37,449 nucleotides of DNA from a virus. Positions 2,256 to 16,260 of this stretch are shown here, piece after piece. The DNA lies in the IMG/VR virus record IMGVR_UViG_3300036832_001742, positions 1 through 37,449 of that record. One strand, given 5' to 3'. The notes below the pieces were generated by a model that saw only the letters and a list, made by a program, of their open reading frames with translations, ran no database searches and was not told the origin of the DNA. Numbering within the stretch: the stretch's first letter is position 1; every line of letters starts with the position of its first letter. A program made the position numbers and the translations under genes.

Positions 2256-4877
2256 TCATGACACCGCTTCCCATGGTGGTTTGTTGAAGAGATCGTGGAT
2301 CTCGGCCTCGGCCTGCTCTTCGTGGGGGAGCGTGGCCTCGGTCATCGTCGAGACCACCGCGATGGCCATCGCCATGACGGCGTCGTCGGAGAGGCCGTCA
2401 GAGGCCGGTCCCATCTCGCCGTTCTGCAGGTAGACGTAGTTCTCCATCTGGTCGTGGGTGATGCGGTCGTGGATGGTGAAGACGCCCCGCTGCGCCAAGA
2501 GGAACTTGACCTTCTCCATGGCCCAGTGCTTGCGCTGGTAGTTGGTCGACCAGCCCCACGAGGTGGAGACCTTGCCCGGGGCCTTGTCGGCCCAGCGGTG
2601 CTGCCACAGGTCGGGGTAGGAGTTGTCCAAGATGACACCGATGGTGGCGTAGCCCGGGCCCTCGATCTCACAGTTGAGCAGGGCCGTGTTGTAGTAGTAG
2701 GCGAGCATCATGAGCTGGTGGGCGAAGGGCACGGCGTCGAGGTGTTGGTGGAAGACCGCGACCTGCTCGAAGGTGAAGCGGTTGATGACCTGGATGCACG
2801 CCTTGTCGCCGTAGGTGGTCTTGGTGGGGTCACCGGCCACCACGTAGCGGGCCTTGAGGGGATCGCGCCCGGGTGACTTGAAGATGGTGAGCGGGCCGGT
2901 GGCGTCGCGGATGAACTTGATGGTGCCCTTGTCGTTGACCAACATGCCCTTGACACCGCTGTCGACGCTGGTGTGCTCGTCGAGGCGTTGGAGCGGGAAC
3001 ACGTTGCGGCCAGTGGAGAGGAAGCTCTCGTTGGGGGTGCACGGAAATTCCTGCTTGAAAAGTTCGTCGTCGCCCAGGCAGTCGTTGACGATGGTGTGGC
3101 GGCGCCAGGCCAGTTGTCCCAGCGACAGGCCGAACTCGCGCGCGAGCTCGCGTTCTTCCTTCAACAGTTCGTACGACTTGAGTGTCGTGGTGGGGAAGGA
3201 GTACTCCTCGTGTTTGAACCAAGGGAAGAAGAGAGGGACGTACTGGGACTCGCCTCGCACCGCCCGCGTCCACTCCTCGTGGAACCAGTTCCCGACCCCG
3301 TTGGCCGTCGACTCCAAGATGACAATGGTGCCGTGCTTGTAGGGCACGCTCTGGTTGAGTCCCACCATGAGTCTTTCCGGCTCGTCCCAGAACGCGCACT
3401 CTGAGTTCGACACGATGCCCGACGGGGTCTCGAAGTTGTGGTCGGGGTGATCGACCTCGATGTCCCATGTCGGCGCTCTTTCATCGGGCACCACACTCTT
3501 GACCCGCACGAAACATTGCCCATCGACGAAGCGGTACTTCTTGATCCATGGCCGTGTCAGACCGTCGCAGAAGTTGTTCACCCAAATCGGTTTCGTCGCG
3601 ATGCCATAGCGCCGTCGGTTGTCGTAGAAGGCCAGGCCACCGTGTCGGCCGAGCATGTCGCCGATACGGTTTATGTTCCGGGCTATCCGTTCATGCACGC
3701 TCGTAGCCGTCGTCCTGATCTTCTGAGTCTTAGAACCGTCACCGTCCAGGTAACCCTCCATGATGCCGGCGAAGAAATCGAGATTGCCGAACGGGGGAAC
3801 ATGCTTGTTCTCCACCCGTCCGCACAGCTCATCGAGAGCGTGAGCCATGAAGACATCGTTGAACTCCGCGACTTCAGTGCGGGTTCCGGCACGACGGATC
3901 TTTCGGGGGGGATTCGCGAAGAACTTCGCGACGTTGTCGACAAAGGTCTCGCCCTGCTTGTACCCGAAGCTGACGCGGTTGCGTTTCTTGGAGATATGAC
4001 CCTCGGCAAGGTAGTAGCCGACCAGGTAGCCGAACTCGGCGTCGAGGTCGAATACCCGATGGCTGACACGTGAGGTGCCGCCATGTTGAGGTCGACCGGC
4101 GAAGGGAACCGAACATTCCCATTTCAGCGCAGACGTGAACCGGTACTTGGGCTTCGCGATCCAGTCCTGTGATGTGAGATGACCAACCGTCTTGTAACCC
4201 TCGATGGTCAACACCTTGTGCTCGGGGGTCGCGACCAGATCCTCGTTGCCGAGCCACATCCGTACCCGGTACGTCTCGCGTTCTCCGGTGGCAGTCTTGG
4301 CCGAGATGGGCGCTATTGCCCCCGATGACGTGAACACCCGATCTCCGAGCTCAACTGCTTTGATCGGCTTGGACGAACCATCGGCCAGCACCACCAGGGA
4401 ATCTTGGTGCAGGCAACAGTGCACGGCGTGGTAGGTGAAGGATCTCCCGCTCCCCGCGTTTTTTGCGGTGGCGACCGACATCGACGAACGGGTCTCGACC
4501 CATGACAGAGACTTGATGGTGTTGTGCTTCTCGGTGTAGAGGGGGTTGAACGGCCACTCCTCCCACATGAGCTTGGTCATGTCGAAGAGGTGCTGGGCCG
4601 CTTTGGTCTCGTGCGCGATGACGAGAGAGCGCGTGCCGGGGTGCAGGAAGGTCCAGTTGAACAGGGTGCCTTCGCTCATGGTCGAAACCCCGAGCTGCCG
4701 GCCCTTAAGACAGATGATGCGGACGGGAAGGCCGAGGTTGTACTGGCGTTCGATCTCTATGCGCAGCGCGTCCTGGGCCCAGGCGAACGGTTCGGACAGG
4801 TCGATGCGCTCAACCTTTAGGTCCTTCTTCTGGATCGTCAGGAGTTCCGTCCACGGGCGTAAACGGAGAGGTTGCAT
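2256..4877 (-). CDS. terL: Terminase large subunit with in-frame intein
   Basis: This is the ATP-driven DNA packaging motor and headful/cos nuclease. The 873-aa precursor carries a 337-residue intein, leaving about 536 residues after splicing, normal for TerL. The Walker A variant is KGRQLGVST (residues 58-66). The Walker B region is rebuilt by splicing as HC + SECAFWDE. The RNase H-like nuclease domain shows AGDPTKTTYGDK, CEIEGPG and SDDAVMAMA as its three acidic motifs. The frame is open up to 5192, but upstream sequence there is a shadow of terS; the first credible start is the ATG at 4877 (MQPLRLRPW), overlapping terS by 68 bp. The Walker A arginine is a CGG codon, which bears on the CCG tRNAs discussed elsewhere. 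Confidence 0.95.
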   Translation of the reverse strand: MQPLRLRPWTELLTIQKKDLKVERIDLSEPFAWAQDALRIEIERQYNLGLPVRIICLKGRQLGVSTMSEGTLFNWTFLHPGTRSLVIAHETKAAQHLFDMTKLMWEEWPFNPLYTEKHNTIKSLSWVETRSSMSVATAKNAGSGRSFTYHAVHCCLHQDSLVVLADGSSKPIKAVELGDRVFTSSGAIAPISAKTATGERETYRVRMWLGNEDLVATPEHKVLTIEGYKTVGHLTSQDWIAKPKYRFTSALKWECSVPFAGRPQHGGTSRVSHRVFDLDAEFGYLVGYYLAEGHISKKRNRVSFGYKQGETFVDNVAKFFANPPRKIRRAGTRTEVAEFNDVFMAHALDELCGRVENKHVPPFGNLDFFAGIMEGYLDGDGSKTQKIRTTATSVHERIARNINRIGDMLGRHGGLAFYDNRRRYGIATKPIWVNNFCDGLTRPWIKKYRFVDGQCFVRVKSVVPDERAPTWDIEVDHPDHNFETPSGIVSNSECAFWDEPERLMVGLNQSVPYKHGTIVILESTANGVGNWFHEEWTRAVRGESQYVPLFFPWFKHEEYSFPTTTLKSYELLKEERELAREFGLSLGQLAWRRHTIVNDCLGDDELFKQEFPCTPNESFLSTGRNVFPLQRLDEHTSVDSGVKGMLVNDKGTIKFIRDATGPLTIFKSPGRDPLKARYVVAGDPTKTTYGDKACIQVINRFTFEQVAVFHQHLDAVPFAHQLMMLAYYYNTALLNCEIEGPGYATIGVILDNSYPDLWQHRWADKAPGKVSTSWGWSTNYQRKHWAMEKVKFLLAQRGVFTIHDRITHDQMENYVYLQNGEMGPASDGLSDDAVMAMAIAVVSTMTEATLPHEEQAEAEIHDLFNKPPWEAVS
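3405..4415 (-). other. Intein with LAGLIDADG homing endonuclease inside TerL
   Basis: This self-splicing element lies in frame at TerL residues 155-491 (337 aa). Block A is CLHQDSLVVLADG, with Cys1 as the splice nucleophile. Block B is LVATPEHKVL (TxxH). The endonuclease motifs are LVGYYLAEG (intein residues about 131-139) and IMEGYLDGDG (about 218-227). Block F is WDIEVDHPDHNFETPSG and the C-terminal block is GIVSN followed by extein Ser+1. The usual penultimate His is replaced by Ser. Insertion falls at the Walker B motif, a highly conserved target that favours re-invasion and makes splicing necessary for packaging. Boundaries are inferred from motifs and from restoration of the SECAFWDE extein motif. 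Confidence 0.93.
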
Positions 4878-5289
4878 AGATGGACCCGGCTTGGGGGTCG
4901 GGGACTCCGATGCCGGCGAAGAGATCACTGAGCTGGTCACGCATGCGTCCCAGCTCTTCGGGGGACTGCTTGCCCAAGATGACCGACTGGCGCGAGAGCA
5001 GGGTGGTGATGAACTGGCGGCGCGTGGCCGAGGGCGCCGATTCGAGAATGTCGAGCGCGTCCTGGTAGGCGTGCCACATGAGGAAGGACATGGCTTCGGA
5101 GATCTCGGCGGTCCCGAACTTCTCGACGTGCAGATCGGCCTGCAGGTCCTTGATGGCGGCGACGTCGACGAGAAAGGCCTTGGCCAGCGCACTCGGGGGC
5201 ACGCCGACTTCGAGCAGGCGGGTGCAGACGGCTTCGAGCCAGTCGGGGGCGGACGAGTCGAGCGTCCATGGGTCAGGCGACGGCGCCAT
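4810..5289 (-). CDS. terS: Terminase small subunit, 159 aa
   Basis: The small subunit recognises pac/cos DNA and stimulates TerL. It sits directly upstream of terL with a 68-bp overlap, the canonical order. Residues about 20-45 (LLEVGVPPSALAKAFLVDVA) resemble a helix-turn-helix, followed by a long helical region (about 55-125) suited to ring oligomerisation and an acidic Pro-rich tail, all usual for TerS. The ATG at 5289 overlaps the upstream gene's stop by 17 bp. Sequence similarity alone is weak; position is the main argument. Confidence 0.75.
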   Translation of the reverse strand: MAPSPDPWTLDSSAPDWLEAVCTRLLEVGVPPSALAKAFLVDVAAIKDLQADLHVEKFGTAEISEAMSFLMWHAYQDALDILESAPSATRRQFITTLLSRQSVILGKQSPEELGRMRDQLSDLFAGIGVPDPQAGSIYATSPFTPVDGTPDDPEEGPKG

Positions 5290-7193: not shown

Positions 7194-7218
7194 AGTTGCT
7201 CGGCGGGGTACGCGACAA

Positions 7219-7240
7219 GGCCCCCACCGAAGTGAGGGCC
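7219..7240 (-). terminator. UUCG-loop terminator of tRNA unit 1
   Basis: On the minus strand GGCCCTCAC-TTCG-GTGGGGGCC forms a 9-bp stem with one U-G pair and a stable UUCG tetraloop, followed by TTGTC. It closes the short transcript that starts at the 7407 promoter. A matching hairpin closes unit 2. Confidence 0.7.
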
Positions 7241-7245
7241 CGTCG

Positions 7246-7283
7246 GCACGGGACTCCGAACGAGTTCCAGTGACGTCACCAGC
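7246..7283 (-). ncRNA. Segment complementary to tRNA 1 anticodon and variable arms
   Basis: The plus strand here reads GCACGGGACTCCGAA, then about 9 nt, then GTGACGTCACCAGC. It aligns with the RNA sense of tRNA 1 (7372-7340): GCGCGGGACTCCGGA and GTGGCGTCACCAGC. In the minus-strand transcript this segment is therefore the reverse complement of the tRNA just upstream. It also folds alone (GGAACTC-GTTCG-GAGTCCC), and its UUCGGAG can pair with all seven anticodon-loop bases CUCCGGA if one G-U pair is allowed. Confidence 0.8.
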
Positions 7284-7310
7284 ACCACCAGATTACCAGT
7301 CCCATGCTGG

Positions 7311-7396
7311 CGGAGGCGGTGGGATTCGAACCCACGGACGCTGGTGACGCCACGAGATCCGGAGTCCCGCGCATTAGGCCGCTCTGCCACACCTCC
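7311..7396 (-). tRNA. Class II (serine-type) tRNA, anticodon CCG, unit 1
   Basis: The 86-nt cloverleaf has acceptor GGAGGTG/CGCCTCC, 3-bp D stem GCA/TGC with loop GAGCGGCCTAA, anticodon stem CGGGA/TCTCG with loop CTCCGGA, a 17-nt variable region with stem GGCG/CGTC, T arm GTGGG-TTCGAAT-CCCAC and discriminator G; CCA is encoded (7308-7310). The body and long variable arm are those of tRNA-Ser, but the anticodon after U33 is CCG, which reads the Arg codon CGG. The D loop lacks the A20 used by ArgRS. Serine charging is therefore plausible but unproven. It has its own promoter and terminator and a downstream self-complementary segment. Confidence 0.85.
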
Positions 7397-7406
7397 GCTA
7401 GCAACC

Positions 7407-7415
7407 ATTGTGCCA
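7407..7415 (-). promoter_or_regulatory. Extended -10 promoter of tRNA unit 1
   Basis: On the minus strand TGGCACAAT is an extended -10 (TGn plus CACAAT) exactly 10 nt upstream of the tRNA 5' end. Unit 2 has TGGCATAAT at the same distance, and both have GTCACRCCC further upstream. A 5' leader of only a few nucleotides is expected. Confidence 0.6.
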
Positions 7416-7510
7416 GGTGGGTGTGACCTTTCCGTGTCATGGGCTGGATCAGTGCCACCGGTGGCGCCACCATTCGTATTGCGACAGCCAGTGCAGGAGA
7501 CGCAACACGT

Positions 7511-7747
7511 TCACCGCCGGCCCTGTCGCTTCTCACGCAGGTACTGGTAGAAGCCGACCGGCTCAGGCTCGTCCTCCTTGCCCATCTGCGCCCGCTCGAG
7601 GGCCTGGACGGCCCGGCGGACGCGGTTGAAGTGATATTCCATCCGGTCGTACTCACGGCGGACCATGGCGGCCTTGAGGGCGTCGAGGCGCCGGTTGAGC
7701 TCGTCGGTGGCGCGGACCTCGGTTTGCTTTTCGACTGGGCCGCTCAC
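7511..7747 (-). CDS. Small charged helical protein, 78 aa
   Basis: Translation from the GTG at 7747 gives a strongly charged, probably coiled-coil protein (TDELNRRLDALKAAMVRREY; RVRRAVQALERAQMGKE) with a basic C-terminus. The frame is open further upstream, but that part is a shadow of the two preceding genes; the GTG overlaps the previous stop as GTGA, the local pattern. Function unknown. Confidence 0.65.
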   Translation of the reverse strand: MSGPVEKQTEVRATDELNRRLDALKAAMVRREYDRMEYHFNRVRRAVQALERAQMGKEDEPEPVGFYQYLREKRQGRR

Positions 7748-7926
7748 GGTGTCGTCCACTTGGCGAGCACCCGTTTGGAATCCCGACGCATCTCGATGTG
7801 GATCTGCGGTTCGTTCACGTCGGCCTGCTCGTGGCCAGCCATGCGATTGCAGCGCGCCGGGCGCGCCACGTCGGCCGATTCGCGCACGACCGGTCCTTCC
7901 GCACCGCACTCGCCCTCTTGCGTCAC
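7744..7926 (-). CDS. Small protein with conserved-looking RC...AGHE motif, 60 aa
   Basis: Starting at the GTG at 7926 (GTGA overlap with the preceding stop) the product contains RCNRMAGHEQAD and ends KRVLAKWTTP, with two Cys and two His that could bind a metal. Short proteins with an R-C-x-R-x-A-G-H-E motif occur in actinophages, usually of unknown function. Flanking genes on both sides are coupled by GTGA. Confidence 0.55.
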   Translation of the reverse strand: MTQEGECGAEGPVVRESADVARPARCNRMAGHEQADVNEPQIHIEMRRDSKRVLAKWTTP

Positions 7927-8081
7927 GGCCGCCGCCCTCTGGGTTTCCGCGGCGGCCACTCCGCCACGATCCTGACGTGGGCCTCGTTGGGAATCCCGAA
8001 CTCGGGGGCGTCGAGGTTCCAGTCGAAGGGCGGGCGGCGCTGTAGTTGCCGACGACGCCACCAGGTGGCGATGCGCTTCAT
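7923..8081 (-). CDS. Small basic protein, 52 aa
   Basis: The protein starts MKRIATWWRRRQLQRRPP and ends PPRKPRGRRP; it is very basic with a Trp pair, so nucleic-acid or membrane-surface binding is conceivable. The ATG at 8081 lies about 10 nt after the terminator hairpin of tRNA unit 2, so it may depend on read-through or on a promoter not recognised here. It is first of a three-gene GTGA-coupled set. Confidence 0.55.
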   Translation of the reverse strand: MKRIATWWRRRQLQRRPPFDWNLDAPEFGIPNEAHVRIVAEWPPRKPRGRRP

Positions 8082-8091
8082 GACGCGACAA

Positions 8092-8111
8092 GACCCCGCC
8101 GAAGCGGGGCC
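8092..8111 (-). terminator. UUCG-loop terminator of tRNA unit 2
   Basis: On the minus strand GGCCCCGC-TTCG-GCGGGGTC forms an 8-bp stem (one G-U pair) with a UUCG tetraloop followed by TTGTC. It is the counterpart of the hairpin at 7219-7240; both are followed by TTGTCGCGT. Confidence 0.7.
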
Positions 8112-8117
8112 CTGTCG

Positions 8118-8151
8118 GCACACGACTTCAGAATCGTGGAGCGCTCGCAGC
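8118..8151 (-). ncRNA. Segment complementary to tRNA 2 anticodon and variable arms
   Basis: The plus strand reads GCACACGACTTCAGAATCGT, then GGAGCGCTCGCAGC. The RNA sense of tRNA 2 (8254-8219) reads GCGCACGACTCCGAATCGTG, then TGGAGCGTCTCGCAGC. The match runs about 34 positions with few mismatches and small gaps. It differs from the unit 1 segment exactly where the two tRNAs differ. The transcript can form CACGA/UCGUG with an 8-nt loop that largely complements the anticodon loop of its own tRNA. Confidence 0.8.
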
Positions 8152-8186
8152 TGTTGTCCACGATACCAGCCGTGTCTTTGCTACGG

Positions 8187-8278
8187 CGGAGGCGGTGGGA
8201 TTCGAACCCACGGGAGACGCTGCGAGACGCTCCACACGATTCGGAGTCGTGCGCAATAGGCCGCTCTGCCACGCCTCC
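8187..8278 (-). tRNA. Class II (serine-type) tRNA, anticodon CCG, unit 2
   Basis: The 92-nt cloverleaf has a perfect 7-bp acceptor GGAGGCG/CGCCTCC, 3-bp D stem, D loop GAGCGGCCTAT, anticodon stem CACGA/TCGTG with loop CTCCGAA, a long variable region of about 23 nt with an outer GGAG/CTCC stem, T arm identical to tRNA 1 and discriminator G. CCA is not encoded (CCG follows). As in tRNA 1 the anticodon is CCG on a serine-type body without A20. The two copies share acceptor, D and T arms but differ in anticodon stem and variable arm. Confidence 0.85.
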
Positions 8279-8288
8279 GCCACCAGGG

Positions 8289-8297
8289 ATTATGCCA
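8289..8297 (-). promoter_or_regulatory. Extended -10 promoter of tRNA unit 2
   Basis: On the minus strand TGGCATAAT (TGn plus CATAAT) lies exactly 10 nt before the tRNA 5' end, as in unit 1. GTCACGCCC lies further upstream in the position of the unit 1 GTCACACCC. Confidence 0.6.
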
Positions 8298-8317
8298 TAA
8301 GGGCGTGACACAACGAG

Positions 8318-8356
8318 GCTCACGGCTTCTCCTGTACTGGTGGGGCGAGGGCGGCG
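8318..8356. repeat. 39-bp repeat, copy 1 (cassette junction)
   Basis: Identical over 39 bp to 9552-9590. It encodes the C-terminal AALAPPVQEKP of the upstream gene, the SD AGGAG and the following GTGA. Shorter versions occur at 8592-8616, 9382-9404 and 9770-9800. Here the GTG opens no credible gene: it runs straight into tRNA unit 2. Confidence 0.85.
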
Positions 8357-8547: not shown

Positions 8548-8597
8548 GGCGTGTTCCATCCAGGAATCCAGCCGCCGTTCCACCAGTAGTAGCTCAC
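8544..8597 (-). CDS. Possible Trp/Tyr-rich 17-aa micropeptide
   Basis: GTG at 8597, carried by the recurring AGGAG-N5-GTGA junction, opens MSYYWWNGGWIPGWNTP and stops in an ATGA that starts the next gene. Four Trp and two Tyr in 17 residues are unusual. It has an SD in normal position and couples both neighbours; it could be a leader/attenuator peptide, a small membrane-active peptide or only a translational bridge. Confidence 0.4.
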   Translation of the reverse strand: MSYYWWNGGWIPGWNTP

Positions 8598-9064
8598 GGC
8601 TTCTCCTGTATTGGTGCCGGAGCTTCCCAAAGCGTTCGCGGAATCAGATCACGGGACGGGTCACGCGGTCGGGATGGCGAATCCCATCCGCCGCGGGCTT
8701 TGCGCTCGGCCACCACGGTCCAACCGGCGGCGCGAAGCGATGCGCCTGACTCACCGTGTTCGTTGTAGGTGATGACCCGGCAGTAGCCGAGAGCAAAGGC
8801 GATACGCGCACAGGCACCGTAGAGCATTGAGTTTGCGTTTTTGTACCCGTCCGTCACGGTGCGATTTACCTCCACCACGGTTCCGTTGTCCAGCACGAAC
8901 GAGACCGGGCGGCCAGCGATGGCGACGCCGACTAGACGATCCTCGTCATCTGCGACCGCGGTGTGAAAGAGGTGGCCGGGCGGCGGCTTCGGATGATGGC
9001 GGTGCCAACTCCGGCAAAACAGGCGAGCCGTCTGCCAATCCACTCTGACCAGGCGCAGACTCAT
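8594..9064 (-). CDS. XF1762-like / GNAT-fold family protein, 156 aa
   Basis: Features of the phage XF1762-type family are visible in order: FCRSWHRHHPKPPPGH (about 17-32), LVGVAIAGRPVSF (about 44-56), VVEVNRTVTDG (about 63-73), NANSMLYGACARIAFALGY (about 76-94), ESGASLRAAGW and a Trp-rich end. The fold is thought to be acetyltransferase-like, related to Mom-type proteins, but the reaction is not established. The ATG at 9064 overlaps the previous stop (ATGA). The C-terminus ends IQEKP, carrying the SD for the next frame. Confidence 0.75.
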   Translation of the reverse strand: MSLRLVRVDWQTARLFCRSWHRHHPKPPPGHLFHTAVADDEDRLVGVAIAGRPVSFVLDNGTVVEVNRTVTDGYKNANSMLYGACARIAFALGYCRVITYNEHGESGASLRAAGWTVVAERKARGGWDSPSRPRDPSRDLIPRTLWEAPAPIQEKP

Positions 9065-9387
9065 TGATTCATCGCCTCGATTATCCGAGCCTTCGCGTCG
9101 AGTGATTTGTTGGTCCAGCGGCCGTCGCCGTCGTAGCCCATCGGAACCCAGCACGGCACAACCTCTAGAACAGCGAGTAACGCCTCACGCTCTACAAACA
9201 CCATGTACTTGCCTTGCTTCATGGCATCTAAGACGGCGGTGGCGATCTGGCGGTAGTCATCATCAGGCCAACCTGGAGCTGGTTCACTGCTCGCGAGTTC
9301 ACGCCATTGCAGCACGCGTTCGATAGCGTCCATAGCGGCAGCCAGGATGTCGTCCTGTCCCGCATCATCGTTCATCAGCGGCCTCAC
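9061..9387 (-). CDS. Hypothetical cassette protein, 108 aa
   Basis: The GTG at 9387 overlaps the upstream stop (GTGA) after an AGGAG embedded in that gene's QEKP codons. The protein is acidic and helical at its start (DDILAAAMDAIERVLQWREL), with a middle section FVEREALLAVLEVVPCWVP. No family recognised. It ends EAMNQ and is coupled by ATGA to the XF1762-like gene. Confidence 0.6.
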   Translation of the reverse strand: MRPLMNDDAGQDDILAAAMDAIERVLQWRELASSEPAPGWPDDDYRQIATAVLDAMKQGKYMVFVEREALLAVLEVVPCWVPMGYDGDGRWTNKSLDAKARIIEAMNQ

Positions 9388-14430: not shown

Positions 14431-15573
14431 CTAGCTGAGCACGGACGCCATGACCTCGGTGGCCCTGGCGTCTTCGGGACTCGGCACGCGGTGGGAATAG
14501 GTGCGGATCACATTGCCCTCGGTGCATCCGAGACGATCGGCCACGTTGCGAGTGGGAATCCCGGCCGCGAGCATGCGGCTGGCGGCAAAATGGCGCAGAT
14601 CGTGGAGCCGGACGTCGCTCACGCCAGCCCGTGTGCACGCGGCGTGCCACTGGTGGCTCGGCCAGCTCACGTTCAAATGGCTCACCCCCGCGTCCTCGGA
14701 AAAGACGAACAGGTTGTCCAAACCCCCCGAAGAACCGAGGGCGAGCACTGTCTCCGCGGCCCGGCGATGCTCCTGGCGTAAGGCCTCGAGAGCGCGCCCC
14801 GCTATGCCCACGGCATAGACCCGACCCCCCTTGTTCTCCTTGAGCACGACGAGGCCATCCTCACCCTCGGTGGCGGCCTCGATGAAGGAGACCCGGCCCA
14901 CGGCCAGATCCACGTCGCGCCAGCGCAGGGCGACGAGCGAGCCGCGGCGGGCCGCGCTAGCGGCGGCGAGCTCGAAGAAGGTGACGGCCAGTGGGCTGCG
15001 GACCGCGTCGATGATCTCGCGCACCTCGACTGGGGTGGGGATACGCCGCTCAGGCGCTCGCCCGCCCGCAGGAGCAACCCGAAGCATCGGGTTGGGGCGG
15101 CGGAGCTCGCCGAGACGCTCGGCGTCGGCGAAGATCGTCCGGATCATGCCGTGCCAGCGCCGCCGCGCCGAAGCGGCTCGACCGGCCGAGGCCCACTCGG
15201 CGTAGAGCCGCTCGATCTGCGCTGGGCTGATCTGGTCCAAGGCGGTACTGCCGAGCGCGGGCAGGATGTAACAGCGCAGGGCGTAGCGGGTCTCCTTGAC
15301 CGTCTTGACCGACCAAGTCCCCTTCTTGCGTTCGATCCAGTCCGCGGCGTAGGAACCGAAGGTGAGGGTCTTGGCCGCACCTCCGGGCCATGCCGCTTCG
15401 GCTTCTCGGGCCAGTTCGACGCGCAGCTCGGCCTCGGCCAGCTCGGCCGCCTTCTTGCCGGCCCGGGTGTTCGCCACCTGGACGTCGCGGTACTTGCGTC
15501 GGCGTCGCTCGCCGGGCCGCGACACGTCGATCACGATGCGAAAGCAACCGCGCTTCTCGTCCCAGTTCGCCAT
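14431..15573 (-). CDS. int: Tyrosine integrase, 380 aa
   Basis: This site-specific recombinase mediates integration at attP. The N-terminal arm-binding domain (about 1-65) is basic (FRIVIDVSRPGERRRRKYRD), the core-binding SAM-like domain spans about 70-160, and the catalytic domain about 175-375. Catalytic residues: Arg in ASAARRGSLVALRW (209/210), Lys in LKENKGG (about 245-248), HDLRHFAASRML (H324, R327) and Tyr359 in IRTYSHRV. The position normally His in LGH is Cys (LGC, 350). The gene points away from attP about 430 bp upstream and is followed by the XRE gene. Confidence 0.93.
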   Translation of the reverse strand: MANWDEKRGCFRIVIDVSRPGERRRRKYRDVQVANTRAGKKAAELAEAELRVELAREAEAAWPGGAAKTLTFGSYAADWIERKKGTWSVKTVKETRYALRCYILPALGSTALDQISPAQIERLYAEWASAGRAASARRRWHGMIRTIFADAERLGELRRPNPMLRVAPAGGRAPERRIPTPVEVREIIDAVRSPLAVTFFELAAASAARRGSLVALRWRDVDLAVGRVSFIEAATEGEDGLVVLKENKGGRVYAVGIAGRALEALRQEHRRAAETVLALGSSGGLDNLFVFSEDAGVSHLNVSWPSHQWHAACTRAGVSDVRLHDLRHFAASRMLAAGIPTRNVADRLGCTEGNVIRTYSHRVPSPEDARATEVMASVLS

Positions 15574-15589
15574 TCCCCCGATCCTCCAA

Positions 15590-15748
15590 CTACTGGGTGT
15601 CGGCGATGCGGGCGGCCTCGTCCGTGAGCTCGCTGATCTCGTCGGTGAGCCGGTCGAGCTGCTTATTCCAACGAGCCAGATGGAACTGCACGATGCCGAG
15701 CAGCCCGACGAGAGCCACGCCCAGCATCGCGATCAGAGCCGTATTCAC
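15590..15748 (-). CDS. Single-pass small membrane protein, 52 aa
   Basis: From GTG 15748 (GTGA overlap with the preceding stop) the protein has one membrane segment (TALIAMLGVALVGLLGIVQF) followed by a charged helix (NKQLDRLTDEISELTDEAAR). Small membrane proteins near integrases can mediate superinfection exclusion; that role is conjecture. It ends 16 bp before the integrase start and is probably co-transcribed with it. Confidence 0.65.
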   Translation of the reverse strand: MNTALIAMLGVALVGLLGIVQFHLARWNKQLDRLTDEISELTDEAARIADTQ

Positions 15749-15966
15749 GACGCGTCCTCGGGATGCGAGTGCCCGAGGTGCTCGGTCCACAGATCGGTCA
15801 TGGCGGTGCCGAGGTCGTGCAGCTCGGTGCGTAGTTCCACGAAGGTCAGACGGACCTCAGCGAACCCGGCGCGCATCTCAGCGAACCCGGCGCGCATTTC
15901 GAGACGCAGGGTTTCGATCTCGGATCGCAGGACCCGGATGTCCGGGCGTGGTTCGTCGTCGTTCAT
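15745..15966 (-). CDS. Coiled-coil protein with internal repeat, 73 aa
   Basis: A tandem repeat MRAGFAE/MRAGFAE/VRLTFVE (about 24-44) extends a helical heptad pattern beginning IRVLRSEIETLRLE. At DNA level this is a direct duplication at about 15856-15897. It is coupled by GTGA to the membrane protein, so the two may form a cytoplasmic/membrane pair. It is the first gene left of attP and reads into int. Confidence 0.65.
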   Translation of the reverse strand: MNDDEPRPDIRVLRSEIETLRLEMRAGFAEMRAGFAEVRLTFVELRTELHDLGTAMTDLWTEHLGHSHPEDAS

Positions 15967-16018
15967 CGGTCCCCTTTTCCCCTGCTAGAGCACGTCTAGC
16001 ACCGCCATAGTACACCGG

Positions 16019-16260
16019 GTTTTGGCTCCAAGGCCTCCAGGTTTGGCTCCATGGACTTTGGCTCCATGGCATTTTTGCCCTCTGACCTGGAGCGGAAGAC
16101 GGGATTCGAACCCGCGACCCTCACCTTGGCAAGGTGCTGAAGGCTCCATCTACCAGGTTCTACGAGCGCAAAACGGCTCCATCTGAACCCCCCAGAACCC
16201 CTGTGAAACCCACGGATTGGCTCCATCGATGGCTCCACGTTCGGCTCCCCTGATAGCCTC
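16019..16260. other. attP: attP region with arm-type integrase sites
   Basis: Direct repeats of (TTT)GGCTCCA(T) flank the tRNA-derived core: 16024-16030, 16042-16052 and 16057-16067 on one side; 16142-16149, 16175-16182, 16219-16226, 16231-16237 and a degenerate 16243-16249 on the other. Same-orientation repeats bracketing a core are typical of arm-type sites bound by the integrase N-terminal domain. The 242-bp region otherwise has no gene. Confidence 0.75.
16088..16136 (-). other. attP core: 3' half of tRNA-Gly(GCC)
   Basis: The minus strand reads CACC-TTGCCAA-GGTG (anticodon arm, GCC), a T arm GCGGG-TTCGAAT-CCCGT and an acceptor 3' strand CTTCCGC-T-CCA, as in a bacterial tRNA-Gly. The 5' half beyond 16136 is unrelated: only 4 of 7 acceptor pairs would form. 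This is the usual phage attachment core, which restores the host tRNA 3' end on integration. Predicted attB: host tRNA-Gly(GCC). Confidence 0.85.

What the first reader, a model, noticed from the sequence alone, without database searches (positions are those of the whole stretch)
7207..8300. Paired units of tRNA plus a segment complementary to its own anticodon and variable arms
Each of the two tRNA genes is followed, within about 30-40 nt and before a UUCG terminator, by the reverse complement of that tRNA's own anticodon and variable arms (7246-7283 against 7340-7372; 8118-8151 against 8219-8254). The two tRNAs differ in anticodon-stem sequence (CGGGA/TCTCG versus CACGA/TCGTG) and in variable-arm sequence and length. 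Each downstream segment follows its own tRNA, as expected if the pairing is under selection. The primary transcript could form either a cloverleaf plus hairpin or a long duplex that masks the anticodon. Possible roles (inference): a self-silencing tRNA released by processing, a regulatory decoy or sponge, or a sensor of anticodon-loop cleavage by host defence nucleases. I know of no described example.
Basis: partly seen in the sequence, partly recalled or inferred. Interest (0 to 1): 0.92.

Follow-up and report, generated by a model that had tools for sequence, protein, structure and literature searches.

The report
Phage tRNAs with self-complementary 3' tails
An uncultivated phage carries two tRNA genes built like serine tRNAs but with an arginine anticodon, and each is followed by a short hairpin complementary to that tRNA's own anticodon and variable arms, so the transcript could fold either as a working tRNA or as a blocked one; no such arrangement turned up in the collections or papers searched, but its function is untested.

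Summary
Two minus-strand tRNA genes (7308-7396, 8185-8278) are each followed by a segment (7246-7283, 8117-8151) complementary to that tRNA's own anticodon and variable arms. Own-pair duplexes score -65 and -60 kcal/mol, cross-pairs about -42; z is -7.8 and -7.1 against shuffles. Only these two of 555 tRNAs compared have strong, composition-corrected duplexes of this size. The two tRNAs differ in these arms, and the tails changed with them: two clean double compensations, one G-U rescue, and the whole variable arm.

(2) Each tail also has a sense-like 5' arm, so it folds alone into a hairpin that competes with the duplex. (3) The UUCG hairpins lack a U-tract, so 'terminator' is unproven.

Best reading: a bistable pre-tRNA that gates a potentially mistranslating tRNA (0.35). 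Main rival: an inverted duplication kept alike by template switching (0.3). No homologous unit was found in viral contigs, GTDB genomes, phages or plasmids, so selection rests on two copies in one genome.

The parts
7308..7396 (-). tRNA 1: class II, serine-type body, anticodon CCG (loop CUCCGGA), CCA encoded, 7/5 acceptor/T stems
   Evidence: ARAGORN; Rfam 49.4 bits; sequence
7284..7307 (-). tail 1, 5' sense-like arm (GCAUGGGACUGGUAAUCUGGUGGU); resembles the anticodon arm of tRNA 1 and pairs with the antisense arm
   Evidence: local alignment score 22, 0 of 1000 shuffles; hairpin fold -25.5 kcal/mol
7246..7283 (-). tail 1, antisense arm: complementary to anticodon and variable arms of tRNA 1
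   Evidence: duplex -65.0 kcal/mol, z -7.8; score 41 vs own tRNA
7211..7245 (-). UUCG-loop hairpin closing unit 1; no U-tract follows
   Evidence: -24.6 kcal/mol, z -5.4; not listed by terminator scan
8185..8278 (-). tRNA 2: class II, serine-type body, anticodon CCG (loop CUCCGAA), 3' end GCCG rather than GCCA
   Evidence: ARAGORN; Rfam 53.6 bits; sequence
8152..8184 (-). tail 2, 5' sense-like arm (ACACGGCUGGUAUCGUGGA...); pairs with the antisense arm
   Evidence: resembles the sense arm of unit 1 (p 0.019) but its similarity to tRNA 2 is not significant alone (p 0.13); hairpin -24.7 kcal/mol
8117..8151 (-). tail 2, antisense arm: complementary to anticodon and variable arms of tRNA 2
   Evidence: duplex -60.3 kcal/mol, z -7.1; score 48 vs own tRNA
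8084..8116 (-). UUCG-loop hairpin closing unit 2, 13-pair stem; no U-tract follows
   Evidence: -27.1 kcal/mol, z -6.0; A-U pair of unit 1 replaced by G-C (sequences)

Best explanation
Each unit is a precursor tRNA that carries its own inhibitor. The minus-strand transcript is tRNA, then a tail hairpin (sense-like arm plus antisense arm), then a UUCG hairpin. If the tRNA folds and is trimmed promptly, a mature tRNA and a tail hairpin result. If the antisense arm captures the unfolded anticodon and variable arms, a 35-39 pair duplex forms that destroys the cloverleaf, hides anticodon and variable arm, and would be a substrate for RNase III. The tail hairpin competes with this, so the outcome depends on folding and processing speed. 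The likely reason for such gating is that the tRNA has serine identity but reads CGG, an arginine codon, and would mistranslate if freely released. Shown: complementarity, own-pair specificity, parallel change in two units, competing computed folds, serine-type identity elements, CGG = Arg in the phage. Inferred: charging with serine, gating in vivo, RNase III involvement, any benefit to the phage.
For: Own duplexes 18-23 kcal/mol better than cross duplexes. In the anticodon-arm region 15 pairs are unchanged, 2 doubly compensated and 1 held by G-U; the variable arms differ in sequence and length yet 15 of 16 and 19 of 22 positions pair. One G-U pair (tRNA G, tail U) is kept at the same place in both units. 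The tRNA stems also compensate (G-C to A-U at 28-42), so the tRNA fold itself is kept. The terminal hairpin keeps pairing through an A-U to G-C change. Full transcript: duplex -106.1/-107.4 versus cloverleaf+hairpin -84.3/-92.6 kcal/mol; computed barrier about 26-27 kcal/mol, so the choice would be made during folding. Serine determinants G73, G1-C72, G2-C71, G30-C40 and long variable arm are present, and serylation is described as independent of the anticodon (PMC9976931). Nearest database tRNAs are tRNA-Ser. In the phage's genes 36 alignable CGG codons face Arg 65% and Ser 0% of the time.
Against: Only two units in one genome; no homologous unit found anywhere. Two of five anticodon-arm differences are not tracked by the tail. 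Tail hairpins alone are only modestly stable against shuffles (z -2.8, -2.0). No promoter or standard terminator was recognised, so the transcript ends are assumed. Energies ignore tRNA modification, tertiary structure and proteins.
Confidence: 0.35

Rival explanations
1. The tail is a by-product of DNA replication: a partial inverted duplication of the tRNA arms made by template switching, copied with the unit, and re-homogenised by further template switching between the inverted repeats, with no RNA function.
For: Tail contains both sense-like and antisense copies of the same arms. Only two units, one genome, no relatives. Template switching between nearby inverted repeats is an established mutation process (own knowledge) and would mimic covariation.
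Against: A shared G-U (tRNA G, tail U) survives two bases from the two covarying pairs in both units, and tail-specific bulges persist, which fresh copying would tend to erase. The UUCG hairpin and the tRNA stems also compensate. The two sense arms resemble each other (p 0.019), so the tail is probably older than the duplication.
Confidence: 0.3
2. The tail hairpin is released as a trans-acting antisense RNA, or the duplex is a shield or decoy against host nucleases that cut anticodon or variable loops of tRNAs (PrrC/colicin D type, Septu/retron-Eco7 type).
For: The masked regions are those cut by such nucleases; Septu and retron-Eco7 cut the variable loop of class II tRNA-Tyr and phage tRNAs counter this (PMC13096335). 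Pairing in trans is also favourable: -81.0 and -77.1 versus -63.1 and -64.9 kcal/mol for the separate parts.
Against: No host is known, so no host tRNA target or defence system could be tested. The tail matches its own tRNA, not a shared target. A decoy needs an accessible loop.
Confidence: 0.2
3. The DNA inverted repeats matter as DNA (cruciform, replication or packaging site) and the RNA complementarity is incidental.
For: Two copies near each other in a phage genome.
Against: The complementarity is interrupted by bulges and G-U pairs that weaken DNA pairing, and it is tied to tRNA landmarks in both units.
Confidence: 0.05

Closest known systems
Allo-tRNAs (Mukai et al. 2017, reviewed in PMC7609411)
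   Same: Serine-identity tRNAs with non-serine anticodons, including Arg; shown to insert Ser at the codon read; found in soil metagenomes; irregular ones proposed to belong to mobile elements or toxin-antitoxin systems.
   Different: Allo-tRNAs are defined by 8/4 or 9/3 acceptor/T stems; these are 7/5. No antisense tail is mentioned in the passages of the review that were read; the original paper was not held.
tRNA-associated theta ribozymes of gut phages (PMC10879173)
   Same: An RNA element in the 3' tail of a phage tRNA thought to control release of a recoding tRNA.
   Different: Theta ribozymes are HDV-like double pseudoknots that self-cleave; here the element is a hairpin complementary to the tRNA, with no Rfam HDV-like match.
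Cis-acting attenuators and riboswitches with mutually exclusive pairing
   Same: One strand (antisense arm) can pair with either of two partners.
   Different: The regulated product is a tRNA, not an mRNA, and the alternative partner is the tRNA's own anticodon and variable arms.
Ordinary phage tRNA-Ser genes (e.g. Burkholderia phage BcepMigl)
   Same: Same kind of body; about 76% identity over the tRNA.
   Different: Ser anticodon (codon UCA) followed after about 10 nt by an annotated terminator, no complementary tail annotated.

Membership tests
Functional class II tRNA | 7/5 cloverleaf, long variable arm, canonical T and D arms, 7-nt anticodon loop with U33 | tested here: met
tRNA-Ser identity | G73, G1-C72, G2-C71, G30-C40, long variable arm | tested here: met
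   sequence against determinants in PMC9976931; actual charging not testable
tRNA-Ser isoacceptor | Anticodon reading a serine codon | tested here: not met
   anticodon CCG reads CGG; 36 CGG codons align with Arg 65%, Ser 0%
Allo-tRNA | 8/4 or 9/3 acceptor/T-stem arrangement | tested here: not met
   7-bp acceptor and 5-bp T stem
Allo-tRNA | Serine identity with non-serine anticodon | tested here: met
   identity elements and anticodon as in the rows above; charging not tested
Theta / HDV-like ribozyme tail | Match to an HDV-like ribozyme family | tested here: not met
   no HDV-like Rfam match in the tails at E up to 5 (unit 1); no dedicated pseudoknot model was built
Intrinsic terminator | GC-rich stem followed by a U-tract | tested here: not met
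   stems present, no U-tract in the sequence; not listed
Bistable RNA switch | Two mutually exclusive folds, both kept by covariation | tested here: inconclusive
   both folds computed; covariation from two sequences only

The most novel reading that the evidence does not exclude
A phage carries a self-gated missense tRNA: a serine-accepting tRNA that reads an arginine codon, held silent by an antisense tail in its own precursor and released under some condition of infection, so that the phage can switch mistranslation on.
Probability: 0.15. Interest if true: 0.92.

Novelty: categorically new. Interest (0 to 1): 0.62.

Why it matters
If the pairing is functional, it is a way to control a tRNA that I found no description of: the precursor encodes its own antisense inhibitor. 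It would also make testable whether phages use serine-bodied tRNAs with foreign anticodons to change translation on purpose. The novelty rating refers to the architecture; if the inverted-duplication rival is right, the feature is a curiosity of replication.

Tried and rejected
Viral scans for serine-bodied CCG tRNAs and one GTDB scan: only chance matches that are not tRNAs. Searches of phage and plasmid records with the units: tRNA-body matches only, never the tail. Fifteen relatives by capsid protein: none has the unit; the nearest relative's contig ends before the tRNA region. Searches with the primase and Mom-like protein found no relatives in IMG/VR. L048, a serine-bodied GAG tRNA whose variable loop seemed to pair with its anticodon: chance level (p 0.15-0.35) and no convincing antisense tail. 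L134 and L059 tRNAs with high z: short duplexes with what look like neighbouring tRNA-like sequences. Rfam sX4 match (E 5e-5): the aligned part of that consensus is itself tRNA-Ser-like, and the score is below gathering. YrlA, istR and microRNA matches: far below gathering. HDV-like fold of the tail: considered by eye, no pseudoknot partner strand found.

Full report
Setting. The window is a 37,449-base virus record of 63.6% GC. Most genes lie on the minus strand: terminase, DNA primase/polymerase-helicase, exonuclease, tyrosine integrase, major head protein. A full-length tRNA-Gly gene beside the integrase is a likely attachment site (inference). The nearest relative's contig runs across the window ends, so the genome is probably circularly permuted (inference).

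What is there. Two tRNA genes lie on the minus strand 788 bases apart among small genes. On that strand each is followed by a 62-68 nt tail and then a UUCG-loop hairpin. The 3' half of each tail is complementary to the anticodon and variable arms of the tRNA just before it. The own duplexes have 35 and 39 pairs, -65.0 and -60.3 kcal/mol, z -7.8 and -7.1; cross duplexes are -42.1 and -42.6. Alignment scores agree.

Is it chance? Raw energy alone would not prove it, since GC-rich stretches elsewhere in the window reach -65. After dinucleotide correction those have z between -0.9 and -4.6, against -5.6 to -7.6 for the units, with random windows at sd 1.13. Of 555 distinct tRNAs in loci fetched here, only these two combine a high z with a duplex of about -60 kcal/mol; the other high-z cases are short duplexes with what look like neighbouring tRNA-like sequences.

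Two units, parallel change. The whole unit was duplicated: the tRNA 3' parts are 100% identical over 29 nt, and the UUCG hairpins and flanks are alike. The sense-like arms of the two tails resemble each other (p 0.019), and both antisense arms share the same U opposite a tRNA G, so the tail probably predates the duplication. Since then the anticodon arms changed at five positions. Two are doubly compensated in the tail, one is kept by G-U, two are not tracked. The variable arms differ in length and sequence, yet nearly all positions pair with their own tail. The tRNA stem changes are themselves compensated and the UUCG hairpin keeps pairing through an A-U to G-C change. This fits selection on RNA, but the sample is two.

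Competing folds. Each tail alone folds to about -25 kcal/mol because its 5' arm can pair with its antisense arm. For the whole unit the duplex fold is lower (-106.1 and -107.4) than cloverleaf plus hairpin (-84.3 and -92.6), with a computed barrier of about 26-27 kcal/mol. Either state would be long-lived once formed, so folding order and processing speed would decide. The findpath barrier is an estimate; modifications and tertiary contacts favour the tRNA.

What the tRNA is. The body is serine-type: class II, G73, G1-C72, G2-C71, G30-C40, long variable arm; serylation is described as independent of the anticodon (PMC9976931). The anticodon is CCG in a normal seven-base loop with U33. In the phage's own genes CGG aligns with Arg (65%) and never with Ser in relatives (36 codons). 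A mature, charged tRNA would therefore be expected to put Ser at Arg codons. Charging was not tested. Of 80 distinct viral sequences matching the serine-type body pattern fetched here (the two units included), 60 carry Ser anticodons and five GTA (those read in full have A73 and look like Tyr); the window's are the only CCG ones. Two scans for CCG forms found no other.

Known relatives. Allo-tRNAs share serine identity with foreign anticodons but have 8/4 or 9/3 stems, whereas these are 7/5 (PMC7609411). Theta ribozymes are the nearest case of a phage tRNA with a control element in its 3' tail (PMC10879173), but they are self-cleaving ribozymes and no such family matches here. The paper searches brought up no tRNA precursor with an antisense to its own anticodon arm; the library is open-access only.

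Judgement. Structure confirmed; RNA-level selection probable (about 0.6, my estimate) but resting on two copies. The most likely mechanism is a self-gated precursor of a potentially mistranslating tRNA (0.35). The strongest rival is an inverted duplication kept similar by template switching (0.3).

Noticed in passing
window 2256-5192 (-): The terminase gene carries an insertion of about 1 kb; relatives match only the two flanking parts, and LAGLIDADG and Hint/intein-splicing domains score in the middle: a probable intein.
   Followed up: partly
window 14431-16163 (-): Tyrosine integrase next to a full-length tRNA-Gly(GCC) gene with CCA: a likely attachment site.
   Followed up: no
window 8594-9154 (-): Mom-like DNA modification protein (PHROG 1384) close upstream of the tRNA region; about 52% identical to proteins of Mycobacterium abscessus prophages.
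   Followed up: partly
L083 (minus strand, about 230-310) and L076 3247: Serine-bodied viral tRNAs with anticodon TTA, which would read the stop codon UAA: possible ochre suppressors.
   Followed up: no
L048 1024-1126: Serine-type tRNA with anticodon GAG (Leu codon CUC) and an unusually long variable loop, not called by ARAGORN; its variable-loop/anticodon pairing is at chance level.
   Followed up: yes
L075, L080, L086, L087, L128: Several viral tRNA-Ser sequences are interrupted just after the anticodon, as by group I introns or integration.
   Followed up: no
Rfam RF02223 (sX4), matched at window 7280-7409: Part of the consensus of this 'proteobacterial sRNA' family reads as a tRNA-Ser sequence, so the family may be partly a mis-annotated tRNA.
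   Followed up: no
window 8318-8342 and 8592-8616: A 25-nt direct repeat (96% identical) near the ends of two adjacent small genes.
   Followed up: no
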